Origin: Terriglobales bacterium
Lineage (GTDB): Bacteria; Acidobacteriota; Terriglobia; Terriglobales; Acidobacteriaceae
NCBI GenBank assembly: GCA_025462725.1
Contig: JAOAPE010000012.1
Span: 483,942-547,941, forward strand
Direction of reading: 5' to 3'
Length of the DNA: 64,000 bases
Part shown: in pieces, positions 26,813-42,342 of the stretch
Layout: each line of letters starts with the position of its first letter
Numbering within the stretch: position 1 is the first letter of the stretch
Position numbers and translations under genes: made by a program
Notes under the pieces: model-generated
What the model saw: only the letters and a program-made list of their open reading frames with translations
What the model was told of the DNA's origin: nothing
Database searches by the model: none

Positions 26813-26902
26813 GGAGAGATGGCCGAGTGGCTGAAGGCGCACGCTTGGAAAGCGTGTTTAGGGGAAACTCTAACGTGGGTTCGAATCCCACTCTCTCCGC
26901 CA
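26813..26902 (+). tRNA. tRNA-Ser (GGA anticodon)
   Basis: A complete 90-base gene with an encoded CCA end. The acceptor arm GGAGAGA pairs perfectly with TCTCTCC. The anticodon loop reads TTGGAAA in a CACGC/GCGTG stem, giving anticodon GGA. A long variable arm (about TTTAGGGGAAACTCTAA) marks a class II serine tRNA, and the T arm is TGGGTTCGAATCCCA. Its 3' end is the attachment site of the genomic island that follows. Confidence 0.96.
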
Positions 26903-27021: not shown

Positions 27022-27447
27022 ATGTTCGGAAGGAAGTGTACTTTATACATTCGGGTAGTATTGCCGGACGGCACTCGCCGCTATTGCAAGCCGGTTTACG
27101 CCCGAAAAGGTGAATTAAAAGCCGGCTATGCTTTCATCGAAAAAAAGCGACTCACACCGGTGGCTCATACCATGCCAGATATGCAAATGATGCTGGCAAG
27201 CGCATTTGGCAAGACTTAGGCGGGGATCCCTACGTCGCTTTGGACAGATTCGACGAGATTGAACGCGAGTTGCGGGACGCTTCACGTTCAGCCGCCAGAG
27301 GGCGGCCAATTCTAGAGCGAGAGACCATTGCAGATGCCAGCCGAACGTACCTCGAGCGCGTCAAGATTAAGCATCAGCGGAACACGAAAGTCGCATACAG
27401 TCGATATCAGAGGCTTTTCCTCGAGCACATCGGTGCTTCAATCACTT
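27022..27447 (+). pseudogene. Tyrosine integrase, N-terminal part, frameshifted and truncated
   Basis: The ATG follows GAGGAGAAG. The first frame reads MFGRKCTLYIRVVLPDGTRRYCKP and continues to YAFIEKK. After a run of seven A (27140-27146) the similarity moves to another frame: THTGGSYHARYANDAGKRIW, then DPYVALDRF and a core-binding region TYLERVKIKHQRN. This matches the N-terminal half of phage-type integrases common in Acidobacteria. The frame stops at 27447, before any catalytic R/H/Y residue, so the enzyme is dead. It is the likely original integrase of the island. Confidence 0.75.
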
Positions 27448-27465
27448 AAACCAAGATACAGTCCA

Positions 27466-29201
27466 ATGCTCAATCTCGAAGGAGGAGTTAAGCCTCGGTG
27501 CGCCGTCTACGCCCGCTACTCCTGCGATATGCAACGCCCGGCGTCAGCCGAAGACCAAATTCGTCAATGCAGAGACAAAGCCGTCCTCAAAGGCTGGCCG
27601 GTGCTCGACGAACATCTATATAAGGATTGAAGCCATTACTGGCGGGACTAGATAAGCTGCTCGAAGCTGCTCAGCAATACCCACGTCCTTTCGATTGCGT
27701 ACTCATTGATGACACTTCTCGGTTAGGCCGTCACGTTCCAGGAACTCTCAGCCTTACCGAGCAACTTGCTTATGCCGGCGTGTTCTTGTACTTCGTAACG
27801 CTTGACTTAGATACACGCGCTGCAAGTGCACGAACTATTCAAACAATAAGCGCCTTGATGGACGAGCAGTACAGCAAGTCGTTGTCTGACAAAGTACATA
27901 GAGGGCAACGGGGTCGGTTCCTCGCAAAATGCAACCCGAGCGGCAGGTGCTACGGCTACACCAATGTTCCCATACTTCATCCGACGAAGATGGCTGAATA
28001 TGGGAGACCGGCGGTAATCGGGTTGAGCAGAAGATTAATGAAAGTGAAGCCGCGATCGTGCGGCACATCTTTGAAATGTACGGGGCAGGTTCCAGCTATA
28101 CAACTATCGCCAAGAAACTGAACGGTGCTGGTACTGCTTCACCTCAGCCGCCGCGTAGCAGAACCGTTCGTGGATGGCACATGTCCACTATTCGGGACCT
28201 CCTATTCAACGAACGATATCGGGGTGTGGTGATATGGAACCGACTCCAAACGTTTCGAAATCCTCACACCGGAAAAAAGAGCGGTCACTGCGCACTGAAA
28301 ACCACTGGGAGCGAATCGAAAATTCCTGCGCTGAGAATTGTTTCGGATGAGCTTTGGACAAAAGCTCACGAGCAAAACAAGCGAATGAGCGAGAAGCATG
28401 GGCCTAAGCGTCTTGGGGGAATGAATCGCGCGCAAACGGTCTATCTTTTTAGCGGGCTCCTGGAATGCGGATTGTGCGGTACCAACATGACCATTGTGGC
28501 CAACAGCGGGAAGTACGCTCGTTACGGATGTCCAAATCAGCGCTTCAAAGGGGCTGTGTGAAAACTCAAACAGAATCGTATATCACAGTCTTGAATCACA
28601 ACTGATTGACGCCATTCGCAAAAATCTAGTGAATCCGCAGATGAAAGAAAACATCTGCTGTTATTTCGAGGAACAACTGAGCAAACCATTGCAGACAGAA
28701 CAGAATTACCTACTAACTGCCGGCGGTCAACGCAGCGGACTTCTTTCCGAGCGGGCTCAACTGCTAAAACAAGCGGACAACATCACCCGTGCCATAGCCG
28801 AACACGGGCTTTCAGACCTTCTATCCGAACAGTTGAGGATGATTGAACCGAAGCTGAGGGAAATTGCGCGACGTCTAGAGGCGCCCGCACCTACGCTCCA
28901 GTTTGACTTTTCGAGGAAGGAGATTGAAGAATTCGTAGAGCGTGAGGCATGGGACTTTTCCGAGGCTCTCACAGCGGATCGCTCTGCGGCACGCCAAGAG
29001 ATACAGAAGCGAATCCGCAAACTGGTCTTAACGCCAAGTAAACAAAAAGGCGTTACCTTCGATGTGACAGGTGATGTCCAGCTCCTTGCGGCTCCAGATG
29101 ATGGAATGCTGAGCAATTCTTTGGGGAGAATTGCTCAGCATTACAACGGTAGTCGTGTGAGCCTTGAAGGTGTAGTGCTGCACTCTTCTTTTTCTTTTTG
29201 A
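27466..29201 (+). pseudogene. Large serine recombinase, decayed by frameshifts
   Basis: Four frames in series give one recognisable protein. The N-terminal resolvase domain has the catalytic serine in YARYSCDMQRPASAEDQ; after a gap near 27630, FDCVLIDDTSRLGR and MDEQYSKSLSDKVHRGQRGR continue it. A lost G near 28021 moves to the frame with RHIFEMYGAGSSYTTIAKKLN and the recombinase zinc-ribbon (LLECGLCGTNMTIV ... YGCPN). The last shift near 28555 leads to a coiled-coil C-terminus ending at 29201. At least three breaks make it non-functional. Confidence 0.8.
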
Positions 29202-31744: not shown

Positions 31745-34700
31745 ATGATCAAGGAACTTATCTCAAGCTGGCCGGTGATTCAGCAAATCAGAAATCGATC
31801 AGACGGAACTGGTTTGGAAGTAATGACCGAAAGGACCCGCCATCTCCAGCCTCGCACGGTCGACGCCCAGGTCGCGCGGTCGGTATGTCCTTACTGCGGC
31901 GTTGGCTGCGGCCAACTCGTTCATCACAAGGATGGGAAGCTGATCTCCATCGAGGGTGATCCAGATTCGCCGGTCTCACGCGGGCGTCTTTGCCCCAAGG
32001 GCTCGGATACCCACGAACTCCACACCCATCCGGGGCGCCTGAAAAAAGTGAAATATCGCCGGCCGTATTCGCGACGATGGGACGAGCTCGATCTCGAGAC
32101 TGCAATGGACATGGTCGCAGATCGGGTATGGGAATCACGCGAGCGCACGTTTGTAGAAAAAGAGAACGGCGCGACGGTGATGCATACCCTCGGCATATGC
32201 CATCTTGGCGGAGCCACGATGGACATCGAAGAAAACTACTTGATACGCAAGCTGTTCACCGGTGGGCTAGGAATGAGTTGCATCAGCAACCAGGCCCGTA
32301 TATGACATAGCTCCACTGTACCCGGTCTGGGTACATCATTCGGGCGCGGCGGCGCTACCACTGCGCAACAGGACCTTTCGAACGCCGATGCGATCCTGAT
32401 CATGGGATCGAATATGGCGGAAAACCATCCCGTAGGTTTCCAGTGGGTGATCGAGGCCCGCGAGAAGAACAAAGCGACGGTGATTCACGTTGACCCACGT
32501 TTTACGCGGACCTCTGCGATGGCGGACATCTGGGTTCCCCTACGCTGTGGGAGCGATATAGTGTTCCTCGGGGGACTGATCCACTACGTCCTCGAGAACG
32601 AAAAGTATTTTCGTGAATACGTTGTGCATTACACCAATGCGCCTACTCTCCTGCGAGAGGATTTCCGCGACACGGAGGACTTGGACGGCTTCTTCTCCGG
32701 ATGGGACGCGGAGAAAAAACTATACGATCCGACTACCTGGCTCTATGAAGGCAGTCCGGAAAAGGGAGCGCTCTTCGGAGGGCCGCTACCCAAGGTTGAA
32801 AAGGACCAGCAGCAAGCCGGACACGAAAAACGCGGGATCGTAGGTCCGGGACAGACCGCCGAAACTGCCAAGCAGGATTTCACCTTGCGGCATCCTCGTT
32901 GTGTGTTCCAGGTTTTGAAAAAGCACTTCGCGCGTTACACGCCTGAGATGGTAGAGCAGTGCTGCGGCGTGCCGAAGGAATTGTTTCAAAAAGTCGCGGA
33001 AGCCTATTGCTCAGCTTCCGGGCCGGACAAGACCGCAGCAATCTGCTATGCCCTCGGCTGGACACAACACTCCAAGGGCGTGCAGATCATCCGCGCCGCG
33101 TCCATCCTACAAATGCTGTTAGGAAACATGGGGCGTCCAGGCGGAGGCATTATGGCCCTTCGCGGCCATGCCTCGATTCAAGGCTCGACTGATGTCGCCA
33201 CGCTATACGACATTTTGCCCGGCTATCTGCCCACGCCGATCTTCAACAGAGACGCCCGCAGTCTGAAAGACTACATCACATATAACAAGGCTAAAACGGG
33301 AGTGTGGTCGGATTTCGACAAGTACATCATCAGTTTTCTCAAAGCCTATTACGGCGATTCTGCGACCGCGGAGAACGATTTTTGCTTCGACTATCTTCCG
33401 CGAGTTACCGGAGACCACTCACATTTCGGTTTTTGGTTGGACATGGCTGACGGCAAGGTGGAAGGCCTGTTTCTGATGGGACAAAACCCGGGAGTGGGCG
33501 GTCCTAATGCCCGTCTGGAACGCAAGGCATTGGCCAAACTGAAGTGGTTAGTGGTGCGCGACATGGTGGAAGTCGAACCCGCTTCCTTCTGGTACAAGTC
33601 GCCGGAGGTCGAACGCGGTGAGCTTAGTCCCGAGACCGTTGCGACCGAAGTATTTCTCTTCCCTGCTTCCGGTGTGTCAGAAAAGGCCGGCACCTTTACC
33701 AACACGCAACGCCTGTTGCAATTTCATGAAAAAGGCGGCGATCCTCCAGGTGATTCAACCAGCGATACTTGGTTCATGGTTCACTTGGGCCGTCGCCTGA
33801 AAGCGAAGGCTGCGGCTGATCCGCGGCCACGGAATGCTCCGCTTAATGCTCTCAAATGGGACTATTCGGTGGCCGGCAAGGACGCCGAGCCCAAGGTCGA
33901 AGAGGTCTTGCAAGAGATCAATGGCTGGACCACTGCCGATCATCGGCTGATCTCAGGGTCCTCAGAGCTACAGGCGGATGGTTCCACGGCGTGCGGCACC
34001 TGGATCTACTCCGGTTGCTATCCGGAGCCGGGAAGGAATCGACCGAATGAACGGCAATCACGCGACCTTTACGGACACGGATGGGGATTTGCCTGGCCAT
34101 CAGACAGGCGCATCCTCTATAACCGCGCCTCCGCGCGTCCGGACGGAAAACCTTGGAGCGAGCGAAAGAAACTGGTTTGGTGGGATGAACAACAAAGACA
34201 ATGGACTGGTCTTGATGTGCCGGACTTTTATCGCGACAAGCCTCCCGATTACAAGCCGCCGGAAGGAGCGGTTGGTGCCGCGGGAATTGGCGGTGATCAA
34301 CCGTTCATCCTCCACCCTGACGGCGTAGCCTGGCTGTTCGTCAGCGCTGGACTAAAGGATGGCCCTTTACCGACCCATTACGAACCGCTGGAATCCCCAC
34401 TTCCTAATCCTTTATATAAGGGCAGCAACTCGGATCCAGCCGCGATGAAACGAGAGCGGCCCGACAATCCCTACGCGCGCTCGCCTGGAGATCCGAGCTT
34501 CCCCTATGTCCTCTCGACTTATCGTCTCACTGAGCATCACACAGCGGGAGGCATGAGTCGAACTCTCAGTCACCTGGCGGAACTGCAGCCCGAGCTGTTC
34601 TGCGAAGTTTCACCGGAGCTGGCGTCTGAGATTGGTTTGAAGCACGGGGCTTTCGCAACCATCACTTCACCTCGCGGCATTGTAGAGGCACGAGTCATGG

Positions 34701-34945
34701 TTACAAATCGCCTGAAGCCGCTGTCGGTGGAGGGCCGTTCTATCCACCAGATTGGTATCCCATTCCACTTCGGCACCAACGGATTGGTCACGGGTGATTC
34801 AGCCAACGATTTGTTACCCATCTCCGAGGAGCCGAATGTTCGCATCATGGAAGCCAAAGCGCTGGTGTGCGACATCACTCCCGGCAGACGTCCGCGAGGA
34901 AAAGCAGCGCTGGAGTTCCTCGCTAGAAAGATGGAGGCGGCATGA
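31745..34945 (+). CDS. fdhA: Formate dehydrogenase catalytic subunit, selenocysteine-containing
   Basis: A molybdopterin enzyme oxidising formate to CO2. One reading frame covers 1,066 residues if UGA 32303-32305 is read as selenocysteine (residue 187, in NQARI-U-HSS). Without readthrough it would split in two. A [4Fe-4S] site (C48, C51, C55, C83) precedes it; HSSTVPGLGTSFGRGGATT after Sec and GSNMAENHPVGFQW fit formate dehydrogenase alpha subunits. ATG 31745 has GGAG upstream. No twin-arginine signal is visible, so the enzyme is probably cytoplasmic. Its ATGA junction couples it to fdhB. Confidence 0.92.
32303..32335 (+). promoter_or_regulatory. Selenocysteine UGA codon with SECIS hairpin
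   Basis: UGA at 32303-32305 is followed after 11 bases by a perfect 7-bp stem, TGTACCC (32317-32323) and GGGTACA (32329-32335), closing a GGTCT loop. Spacing and the GGUCU apex match the SECIS of Escherichia coli fdhF, the element SelB binds. Confidence 0.88.
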
Positions 34946-35787
34946 GCACTGCGACAAATCTCCAGGGCCACTCCGGCCAGACGACCGCGTTCTTGACCGA
35001 TTCGACATTGTGCATTGGTTGCAAGGCCTGCGAGGTAGCGTGCAAGGAGTGGAATGGCGTCAGTGCAGACGGATTCGACTGGTCGGGTTTCTCTTACGAC
35101 AACACCGGCGCGGTTGGGCACTCAACGTGGCGGCATGTGAAATTTGTAGAGGGCAATCCTCAACCGGGTTTCGGCGGAAATGCCGGCGAGGCCATTTCAT
35201 GGGAATTTTCCTCCGACGTTTGCAAGCACTGTGAAGTAGCCGGATGCTTGGAGGCATGTCCGACTGGCGCGATCACGCGCATGGAATTCGGTGCTGTGTA
35301 CGTGCAGCCGGACGTATGCAATGGCTGTTCATATTGCGTCGTAGCTTGCCCCTTTGGCGTGGTGCAGAAGAATGTTGAAGACGGCCGCGCATTCAAGTGC
35401 ACCTTCTGTTCTGATCGACAGCGAGTTGGGTTGGAACCCGCTTGCGCAAAAGCCTGTCCCACGCAATCCATTAAATTCGGAGAGATCAACCAGTTCCGCA
35501 ACGAAGCACAAGATCGCCTGCAGGAATTGAAGGCGCGCGGAATCGAGGATGCGACAGTGTATGACCCGCAAGATACCAGCGTGGGCGGGATCCATTCGAT
35601 CTTCCTCGTTCGCGGTGACCCGCGCACCTACAATCTTCCGCCCAAGCCGGAAGTGCCAACCATCTATCTCAAAGACGGATGGCGCTCAGCGGGAATCGCC
35701 GCCGGGATGATGGTAGTCGCAGGTCTGGCCGCATTCTTGAGTACTCCGGCTAAGAATGGAAAACGTCTGGAAGGAGCCGGCAGGTGA
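34942..35787 (+). CDS. fdhB: Formate dehydrogenase iron-sulfur subunit
   Basis: A 281-residue electron-transfer subunit with four [4Fe-4S] cysteine groups: CIGCKACEVAC, CKHCEVAGCLEAC, CNGCSYCVVAC and CTFCSDRQRVGLEPACAKAC. A single C-terminal membrane helix (AAGMMVVAGLAAFLS) anchors it, as in E. coli FdnH. It takes electrons from FdhA to the membrane subunit. The start overlaps the fdhA stop (ATGA) and its own stop overlaps the next gene (GTGA), so the three are translated as a unit. No Tat signal is seen. Confidence 0.93.
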   Translation: MSTATNLQGHSGQTTAFLTDSTLCIGCKACEVACKEWNGVSADGFDWSGFSYDNTGAVGHSTWRHVKFVEGNPQPGFGGNAGEAISWEFSSDVCKHCEVAGCLEACPTGAITRMEFGAVYVQPDVCNGCSYCVVACPFGVVQKNVEDGRAFKCTFCSDRQRVGLEPACAKACPTQSIKFGEINQFRNEAQDRLQELKARGIEDATVYDPQDTSVGGIHSIFLVRGDPRTYNLPPKPEVPTIYLKDGWRSAGIAAGMMVVAGLAAFLSTPAKNGKRLEGAGR

Positions 35788-36869
35788 GAGAGCCCTTAAA
35801 ACGTGAGCAAGTTCCAGACGACGCGCGTGAAGCACGGCTCGTGAGCATTCGCAAAGAAGCAGAGAAAAAGGGCCGATTGGTGGAACAAGGAGTTAGGCCT
35901 GTGGGCGCTCCGTTTCCTAAGGCATCGCCCGAAACTGGCTATTACGGCATTCCCCTATTGAAGGAGCCGCAGTGGACTTGGCAGGTTCCCATTTATTTCT
36001 TTGTTGGGGGTGCGTCTGGCGCTGCCGCGCTCATAGGCGCGTTGGCCAAAGTGATCGGCAAAGATGAGCGCCTCGCGCGCGACGCGCGTCTGGTTGCGGC
36101 TGGCGGTGGAATCATTTCGAGCGGATTGCTGATCGCAGACCTTGGCAGGCCTGAGCGTTTTCTCAACATGTTGCGCGTGTTCAAGATTCAGAGCCCGATG
36201 TCCGTCGGCGCGTGGGTGCTGGCATTCTTCAGCAGCTCTTCTGGAGCCGCAGCTTTTGCTCAGCTTGTTGAACAAAAGATCGACATCGGCCCCATCCGCG
36301 TCTTGGGGAACGTCGCCGAAGGATTCTCTGCGGCAATGGGATTGCCGCTTGCCACCTACACAGGAGTGCTCATCGGCGCGACGGCCATTCCCGCGTGGAA
36401 TCACAACATCAAATCACTTCCCATACATTTCGGAATGTCAGGACTGGGATCGGGGGTTTCCGTTCTGGAATTAATGGGGAATGACGACAGCCCGGCGCTC
36501 AACATGCTCGGGATCGGCGCGTCTGCAGTAGAAAGCTATGAGGGTTTCCATCTGGAATTTAGGCGCGATCCCCAGGTGAATCGTCCGCTGAAACATGGAC
36601 TCACGGGTTGGACGACACGATTAGGCGGCTTGCTTTCAGGACCCGTCCCTTTGGCGCTGCGCCTGATCGCCAGTGCCTCGGGATCGCGACGCTTGCGACG
36701 TGCCGCTGCTTGGTCGAGCATCGCCGGTAGCATTTTGACTCGAGTCGGCTGGATCTATGCAGGTCGCGAGTCGGCTCGAGACTGGCGCATCCCTTTGCAG
36801 ATAGAACAACCGCCATCGACGCCGGAGCTGGCATCGGAGCGAGACGTTCCGCAGATGCGAGCAGGTTGA
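35784..36869 (+). CDS. NrfD/PsrC-type membrane subunit of formate dehydrogenase
   Basis: A 361-residue polytopic protein of the NrfD (polysulfide reductase) family, with a soluble start and then about eight hydrophobic segments (QVPIYFFVGGASGAAALIGALA, GGIISSGLLIADLGRPERFLNML, PMSVGAWVLAFFSSSSGAAAF). The GRPERFLNMLRVFK stretch is characteristic. NrfD proteins exchange electrons with menaquinone or quinone, so it should replace the cytochrome b subunit of E. coli Fdh-N. Start is GTG 35784, overlapping the fdhB TGA. The membrane quinone as electron acceptor is family knowledge. Confidence 0.88.
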   Translation: MREPLKREQVPDDAREARLVSIRKEAEKKGRLVEQGVRPVGAPFPKASPETGYYGIPLLKEPQWTWQVPIYFFVGGASGAAALIGALAKVIGKDERLARDARLVAAGGGIISSGLLIADLGRPERFLNMLRVFKIQSPMSVGAWVLAFFSSSSGAAAFAQLVEQKIDIGPIRVLGNVAEGFSAAMGLPLATYTGVLIGATAIPAWNHNIKSLPIHFGMSGLGSGVSVLELMGNDDSPALNMLGIGASAVESYEGFHLEFRRDPQVNRPLKHGLTGWTTRLGGLLSGPVPLALRLIASASGSRRLRRAAAWSSIAGSILTRVGWIYAGRESARDWRIPLQIEQPPSTPELASERDVPQMRAG

Positions 36870-36932: not shown

Positions 36933-38213
36933 ATGTCTTCAGCAGGCCCAGTGACAGCAAACAGGGGCAACTTGCCGAACCGCTGGGCTATTGCGGCGGG
37001 GGGCGTGCTCATGCAGATTGCGCTCGGTGCGGTATACGCCTGGAGCGTATTCCGCATTCCGCTGACGAAGGCCTTTGGCTGGACGATCACGGAAGTCACA
37101 TTCACTTTTACGGTGAGCATCCTGATGCTCGGTTTTGCCGCCTTTGCCGGCGGGCTCTGGATGCGGAAAGTGGGGCCGCGGAAGGTAGCCCTGACCGCCG
37201 CGATCTTCTACGGAGCCGGCGTCTTCCTTGCGAGCCTCTCTGCAGGCCGCCTTTGGTGGCTGTATTTCTCGTACGGCTTTCTAGGGGGAATCGGCTTGGG
37301 ACTGGGCTACATTGTTCCCGTTGCAACGCTGGTCAAGTGGTTCCCCGATAAGCGGGGCATGATCACGGGTCTCGCCGTGGCAGGGTTCGGCGCCGGAGCG
37401 CTCATTACGGCGCCAATCGCGACGAGGCTGATTGCGAGCGTCGGCGTACTGAAGACTTTCGCTATTCTTGGGATCGGGTATTTCATTGCCGTCACGTTCG
37501 GCGCGTTGTTCATGCAAGATCCACCCCCAGGATATGTCCCACCCGGGTGGACACCAACCGCGGCTGAGAAGCGAGAACGCGCGGCACAAGACTTCACCCT
37601 GAGCGAAGCATTGCACACCCGGCAGTGGTACGCATTATGGGCGCTCTTGTTTCTGAACACATCGGCGGGTATCTCAATCATTTCACAAGCGGCGCCGATG
37701 GCCCAGGAGATCACGGGAGTGAGCGCCGTGACCGCGGCGGGAATGGTAGGAATCATCTCGATTGCAAACGGATCGGGCCGCTTTTTATGGGCTTGGTTTT
37801 CTGACTTAGCCGGACGTCGCTGGGTGTTTCTGTCGATGTTTCTCATTCAGGCGGTGGTCTTTTTTGTGATGCCACGCGTGACCACCTTCGCGTTGTTTAC
37901 CACCCTCGCGTTCATTGTTCTGCTTTGTTACGGAGGTGGGTTCGGGACGATGCCGGCATTTGCTGCGGATTATTTCGGAACGAAGGACGTTGGGTCCATC
38001 TACGGGCTTATGCTGACGGCATGGGGCTTTGCCGGAGTGTTAGGGCCAGTATTGATCGCCACAATTCGGCAACGCACTGGAGCGTACAGCGGGGCTCTCA
38101 CCGTGATTGCATTCATTGTGCTGGTCTCTGCAATCATTCCGCTAATCATCCGTCCGCCTGCGAGCGGAGCTGCACCGGCAAGGACCAGGGAACCTAGCCC
38201 ACGAGCGGCTTAG
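36933..38213 (+). CDS. OFA-family MFS transporter (oxalate/formate antiporter-like)
   Basis: A 426-residue, 12-helix major facilitator. GAVYAWSVFRIPLTKAFGW, the loop GLWMRKVGPRKVAL and PVATLVKWFPDKRGMITGLA match the OxlT-like oxalate:formate antiporter family. An AGGAGG site lies 8-9 bases before ATG 36933. It follows the fdh operon in the same direction, 63 bases on. The natural inference is import of formate or exchange of formate with another acid for the cytoplasmic dehydrogenase. No oxalate-degrading genes (frc, oxc) are in the window, so the counter-ion is unknown. Confidence 0.87.
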   Translation: MSSAGPVTANRGNLPNRWAIAAGGVLMQIALGAVYAWSVFRIPLTKAFGWTITEVTFTFTVSILMLGFAAFAGGLWMRKVGPRKVALTAAIFYGAGVFLASLSAGRLWWLYFSYGFLGGIGLGLGYIVPVATLVKWFPDKRGMITGLAVAGFGAGALITAPIATRLIASVGVLKTFAILGIGYFIAVTFGALFMQDPPPGYVPPGWTPTAAEKRERAAQDFTLSEALHTRQWYALWALLFLNTSAGISIISQAAPMAQEITGVSAVTAAGMVGIISIANGSGRFLWAWFSDLAGRRWVFLSMFLIQAVVFFVMPRVTTFALFTTLAFIVLLCYGGGFGTMPAFAADYFGTKDVGSIYGLMLTAWGFAGVLGPVLIATIRQRTGAYSGALTVIAFIVLVSAIIPLIIRPPASGAAPARTREPSPRAA

Positions 38214-41758: not shown

Positions 41759-42307
41759 TTACAAGTTGCCAGCTGACGCAGCTGACGCTTTGTTTCCCGA
41801 GTTAGCCGGGAGATCGTTTGCGTTTGCTGGAACTGGCACCTGCGGGGCTGCCTCCCACATGGACGGATCGGCGTGATAAGCCAAATCACCAGTGGTGTTC
41901 AGGTCTGCCGGGGTGGCGGTAATTTCATACGACTGCACTGTTCCGTTGGGAGCCTCAACCGTGCCTGTGTAGGTGAAGTAGTATCCGCTCTTTGCTGTTT
42001 CGGGGGTCGTGGCGTCAGCCAGTGAGGAGTCGATCAAGCAAGCAGCAGATTTTGACGGAGCAGCATTGCCCATGCCGCAGGTTTGGGGACTGCCGCCTAA
42101 TGCTGCCAGCGACGAAGCAAATCCACCAAAGATTGAATGGAAGTTCACATCTGCCGTCATGATGGCGTGTATTGAGCCAACGGCCGAAGCCTGATTGGCG
42201 GCAATACGAGCTTTCATCAAGCTGGGTATCGCAATAGCCGCGAGCGTGGCGATAATTGCCACAACCACCAGCAGCTCGATCAGCGAAAAACCCTTCTGTT
42301 TGCGCAT
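41759..42307 (-). CDS. Type IV pilin (PilA-like)
   Basis: A 182-residue prepilin. From ATG 42307 it begins MRKQKG/FSLIELLVVVAIIATLAAIAIPSLMKARIAANQAS: a short basic leader, the Gly-Phe cleavage site for prepilin peptidase, and Glu at mature position 5. Two cysteines (TCGMG ... ACLIDS) fit a pilin disulfide. The frame extends to 42328, but the later start fits known leaders. Together with the PilT gene at 2.2 kb it implies twitching pili, though the pilus assembly genes are elsewhere. Confidence 0.88.
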   Translation of the reverse strand: MRKQKGFSLIELLVVVAIIATLAAIAIPSLMKARIAANQASAVGSIHAIMTADVNFHSIFGGFASSLAALGGSPQTCGMGNAAPSKSAACLIDSSLADATTPETAKSGYYFTYTGTVEAPNGTVQSYEITATPADLNTTGDLAYHADPSMWEAAPQVPVPANANDLPANSGNKASAASAGNL

Positions 42308-42342
42308 ACCACTAACTCTTTCAACCACACTTACCGAGACCT

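What the first reader, a model, noticed from the sequence alone, without database searches (positions are those of the whole stretch)
31745..34945. Selenocysteine formate dehydrogenase hidden as two ORFs
The frame before UGA 32303-32305 and the frame after it are the same, and the context NQARI-U-HSS is the known Sec position of formate dehydrogenases. A SECIS hairpin with the E. coli fdhF-type GGUCU loop starts 11 bases later. Automatic annotation would report a truncated gene. Seen: frame continuity, hairpin, motifs. Known: SelB-dependent decoding in fdhF. Inferred: decoding happens in this host.
Basis: partly seen in the sequence, partly recalled or inferred. Interest (0 to 1): 0.8.

Follow-up and report, generated by a model that had tools for sequence, protein, structure and literature searches.

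The report
Ordinary selenocysteine formate dehydrogenase gene
This acidobacterium encodes a normal selenium-containing formate dehydrogenase whose gene is interrupted by a UGA codon read as selenocysteine; the genome holds the whole decoding machinery, so the finding is correct but of a well-known kind.

Summary
One reading frame runs 31745-34945 with a single internal in-frame UGA at 32303-32305 (residue 187). It is followed after 11 bases by a perfect 7-bp hairpin (32317-32335) with a GGUCU loop, at the same offset as in E. coli fdhF. The protein aligns with E. coli FDH-N, UGA on its Sec. All 110 sequences compared carry a stop codon there (107 UGA, 3 UAG). The hairpin is under selection: the Val192/Gly196 silent-site pair is complementary in 97 of 97 non-redundant sequences, through six pair types, and ranks first of 6,820 control pairs. 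The same genome has selA, selB, a tRNA-Sec (UCA) and selD, itself with an in-frame UGA. In 150 genomes of the order, UGA-containing FDH tracks SelB (39/41 against 20/109). The gene heads an alpha-beta-NrfD operon, a non-Tat relative of FDH-N (NCBI model NF041513), probably quinone-linked. Selenoprotein FDHs are the commonest bacterial selenoproteins and selenoproteins were counted in Acidobacteria by 2006. So: real, ordinary. One side result is less ordinary: no fdhD gene was found here or in most FDH-bearing relatives (30 of 41 lack it).

The parts
31745..34945 (+). fdh alpha (catalytic) subunit, 1066 aa read with Sec at residue 187
   Evidence: single internal in-frame UGA; NF041513 1598 bits against cutoff 1400 and TIGR01553 968 bits against 814
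32303..32305 (+). UGA codon read as selenocysteine (Sec187)
   Evidence: aligned with the Sec of 1KQF and 1H0H; a stop codon in all 110 sequences compared, never a sense codon
32317..32335 (+). bacterial SECIS hairpin, UGUACCC-GGUCU-GGGUACA
   Evidence: fold; covarying silent sites, 97/97 paired
34942..35787 (+). fdh beta subunit (4Fe-4S), start overlapping the alpha stop (ATGA)
   Evidence: TIGR01582 199 bits, below its cutoff of 334.7; PF13247 84 bits; neighbour conserved
35784..36869 (+). NrfD-type membrane subunit (gamma)
   Evidence: PF03916 60.7 bits, PF14589 52 bits; neighbour conserved

Best explanation
A selenocysteine-containing, membrane-linked formate dehydrogenase. SelA and SelD make Sec-tRNA(UCA); SelB carries it and binds the hairpin just after UGA 32303, so that UGA is read as Sec187, the ligand of the Mo/W-bis-pterin cofactor. 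Without SelB the product is a 186-residue stump. The full subunit oxidises formate and passes electrons through the Fe-S beta subunit to the NrfD-type membrane subunit and, by inference, to quinone. Shown here: frame, hairpin and its conservation, machinery genes, operon. Inferred: that decoding occurs, the reaction, the electron route, the cytoplasmic side (no Tat motif).
For: Frame and UGA; hairpin; silent-site pair V192/G196 complementary in 97/97 (42 expected; most in 5,000 shuffles 62), MI 1.44 bits, first of 6,820 pairs, next 0.30; CCC at P193 in 97/97; stop codon in 110/110 sequences; selA, selB, selC, selD in genome; SelB over cutoff in 39/41 genomes with UGA-FDH and 20/109 others, Fisher p 1e-18; alignment to FDH-N; alpha-beta-NrfD order conserved.
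Against: No expression or protein data. SelB was not found in two relatives with UGA-FDH (G117, G125), although both have selA and tRNA-Sec; probably assembly gaps. No fdhD found in the genome, a factor that E. coli FDH needs.
Confidence: 0.97

Rival explanations
1. A pseudogene or sequencing error: UGA is a premature stop in a dead or wrongly read gene.
For: Degenerate recombinase-like ORFs lie about 3 kb upstream, so pseudogenes exist nearby.
Against: All 110 sequences compared carry a stop codon at the same place; about 880 further codons without another stop; covarying silent sites.
Confidence: 0.005
2. UGA terminates translation and a second protein starts at ATG 32402, giving a split enzyme.
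For: Open frame from 32402.
Against: Solved homologues are one chain through this point; the residue is the metal ligand; the segment 32306-32401, conserved as protein, would be lost; the SECIS would have no role.
Confidence: 0.01
3. UGA is read by a near-cognate or suppressor tRNA as Trp, Cys or another residue.
For: None found.
Against: Complete Sec machinery and tRNA-Sec(UCA) in the genome; SelB co-occurrence.
Confidence: 0.01

Closest known systems
E. coli FDH-N (FdnG, PDB 1KQF) and FDH family TIGR01553
   Same: Aligned over nearly the whole length, UGA on its Sec, following His, Fe4S4 and molybdopterin domains.
   Different: No Tat motif in the N-terminus and an NrfD-type gamma subunit in place of cytochrome b FdnI.
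NF041513 formate_DH_Act (NCBI model for formate dehydrogenase)
   Same: 1598 bits over cutoff 1400, nearly full length; actinobacterial relatives 55-58% identical, most with the same alpha-beta-NrfD order.
   Different: Host is an acidobacterium.
E. coli fdhF SECIS
   Different: Perfect 7-bp stem here, no bulged U.
D. gigas / Desulfovibrio W/Sec-FDH (1H0H, 6SDR)
   Same: Best sequence match in PDB, Sec aligned.
   Different: Those are periplasmic enzymes (established knowledge, not tested here).

Membership tests
Bacterial selenoprotein | in-frame UGA with homology on both sides | tested here: met
Bacterial selenoprotein | SECIS hairpin just downstream, under selection | tested here: met
Bacterial selenoprotein | selA, selB, selC, selD in the genome | tested here: met
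Bacterial selenoprotein | Sec present in the protein | not testable with these tools
   needs mass spectrometry or 75Se labelling
Formate dehydrogenase alpha (TIGR01553 / NF041513) | score above curated cutoff | tested here: met
   968 against 814 and 1598 against 1400 bits
Formate dehydrogenase alpha (TIGR01553 / NF041513) | Sec/Cys-His active site and N-terminal Fe4S4 cysteines | tested here: met
   NQARI-U-HSS; PF04879
FDH-N respiratory complex (FdnGHI) | Tat signal on alpha | tested here: not met
   no twin-arginine motif in the first 60 residues, by pattern
FDH-N respiratory complex (FdnGHI) | cytochrome b gamma subunit FdnI | tested here: not met
   third gene is of the NrfD family

The most novel reading that the evidence does not exclude
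In this order most Sec-formate dehydrogenases mature without FdhD, the sulfurtransferase thought to add the essential sulfido ligand: fdhD was found in 11 of 41 genomes with UGA-FDH and 34 of 109 without, and not in this genome. Some other protein may then sulfurate the cofactor. That some FDH-expressing organisms lack fdhD is already noted in PMC10609526.
Probability: 0.25. Interest if true: 0.4.

Novelty: new member of a known kind. Interest (0 to 1): 0.13.

Why it matters
It gives a correct reading of a gene that a standard pipeline splits, and a clean example of silent-site covariation supporting a SECIS. Otherwise it adds one more selenoprotein FDH. The missing fdhD, if real, bears on how FDH cofactors mature.

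Tried and rejected
Hairpin energy z-scores proved uninformative; covariation replaced them. A second RF01852 hit over cutoff (L011) is an ordinary tRNA-Ser by ARAGORN. G117 and G125 looked like Sec genomes without SelB; a search with the window genome's own SelB found only weaker matches that look like other elongation factors, so absence and assembly gap cannot be told apart. A call to the count of structure pairs failed for lack of an alignment id; the same count was done by script. Conserved neighbours that might replace FdhD were sought: apart from beta and NrfD the widely shared clusters are mostly out-of-frame ORFs of the same genes, and an FdhD-like gene, named by eye, appears in only 3 loci (L042, L047, L048). 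A search for literature on UAG as Sec codon in Geodermatophilaceae found no held paper on it.

Full report
What is there. The frame 31745-34945 translates into 1066 residues with one internal stop, UGA at 32303-32305, residue 187, and a terminal UGA that overlaps the next start codon (ATGA at 34942-34945). Under the standard code it appears as two ORFs. Eleven bases after the UGA begins a perfect 7-bp hairpin with loop GGUCU (32317-32335, -10.5 kcal/mol). It is the only TGA of 2,198 in the window with such a stem at that offset.

Is the hairpin more than chance? Folding energy alone is not convincing: in a 50-base stretch another fold wins. Comparison is convincing. Of 110 sequences (window and relatives), 107 have UGA and 3 UAG at this place (the search pattern allowed Cys or a stop, and no Cys was found); the UAG cases are Geodermatophilus and Blastococcus. 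In 97 non-redundant sequences of the clade the third codon positions of Val192 and Gly196, which face each other in the stem, are always complementary: G-C 42, C-G 34, T-A 17, T-G 2, A-T 1, G-T 1; 42 would pair by chance and no shuffle exceeded 62. Their mutual information (1.44 bits) ranks first of 6,820 pairs of conserved fourfold sites, the next being 0.30. Pro193 is CCC in all 97 and Gly194 is GGT in 84. Shuffles do not remove relatedness, but the 6,820 other pairs of the same gene do serve as a control for it.

Machinery. The genome (4.33 Mb, 91 contigs, 100% complete by estimate) has SelB (400 bits), SelA (536 bits), a tRNA-Sec with anticodon UCA (65.6 bits) and SelD (363 bits). SelD itself has an in-frame UGA in AGUASK, the UxxK motif that a review lists for Sec-SelD (PMC13188914), so it is a second probable selenoprotein. 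In 150 genomes of the order, SelB over cutoff occurs in 39 of 41 with a UGA-FDH and 20 of 109 without.

What it does. The protein passes the cutoffs of NF041513 and TIGR01553 and aligns with E. coli FDH-N (1KQF) and the D. gigas enzyme (1H0H), UGA on their modified Sec residue (printed X). The operon continues with an Fe-S beta subunit and an NrfD-type membrane subunit, an order seen in most relatives. No twin-arginine motif was found. I infer a formate:quinone oxidoreductase with the active site on the cytoplasmic side; this step is not tested.

Known or new. FDH alpha is the most widely distributed bacterial selenoprotein (PMC13188914). A 2006 survey already lists 4 selenoproteins of 3 families in Acidobacteria (PMC1794560), and a 2025 paper counts 3 in Occallatibacter riparius, an acidobacterium (PMC12013277). 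The finding is right and ordinary.

A loose end. FdhD is essential for FDH activity in E. [quoted passage not shown] No fdhD was found in this genome by two models, and it is lacking in 30 of 41 genomes with UGA-FDH (this one included), while the same search found it strongly in 45 genomes. An FdhD-like gene was seen next to FDH in 3 of the loci compared (named by eye). Assembly gaps could explain one genome but hardly thirty; a diverged FdhD or another sulfurtransferase remains open.

Noticed in passing
whole genome G000; relatives in the same order: No fdhD found although a Sec-FDH operon is present; the same in 30 of 41 genomes of the order with UGA-FDH, this one included.
   Followed up: partly
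L018:1531-1533: selD carries an in-frame UGA in the active-site motif AGUASK, with a hairpin downstream: a second probable selenoprotein.
   Followed up: partly
L076, L077, L091: Geodermatophilus and Blastococcus FDH genes have UAG instead of UGA at the Sec position, hairpin kept; recalled as reported UAG-Sec recoding, no paper found here.
   Followed up: partly
27328-29201: A serine recombinase split over four overlapping ORFs in different frames, probably a decayed element, about 430 bases downstream of a tRNA-Ser (26813-26902).
   Followed up: no
36933-38213: MFS transporter of the lactate / oxalate-formate family directly after the fdh operon; similar genes near FDH in only 5 related loci.
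   Followed up: partly
genomes G117 and G125: selA, tRNA-Sec and UGA-FDH present but no SelB found; assembly gap or real absence not resolved.
   Followed up: partly
41759-42328: Type IV pilin-like protein with the KGFSLIELLVVVAIIATLAAIAIP start on the minus strand.
   Followed up: no
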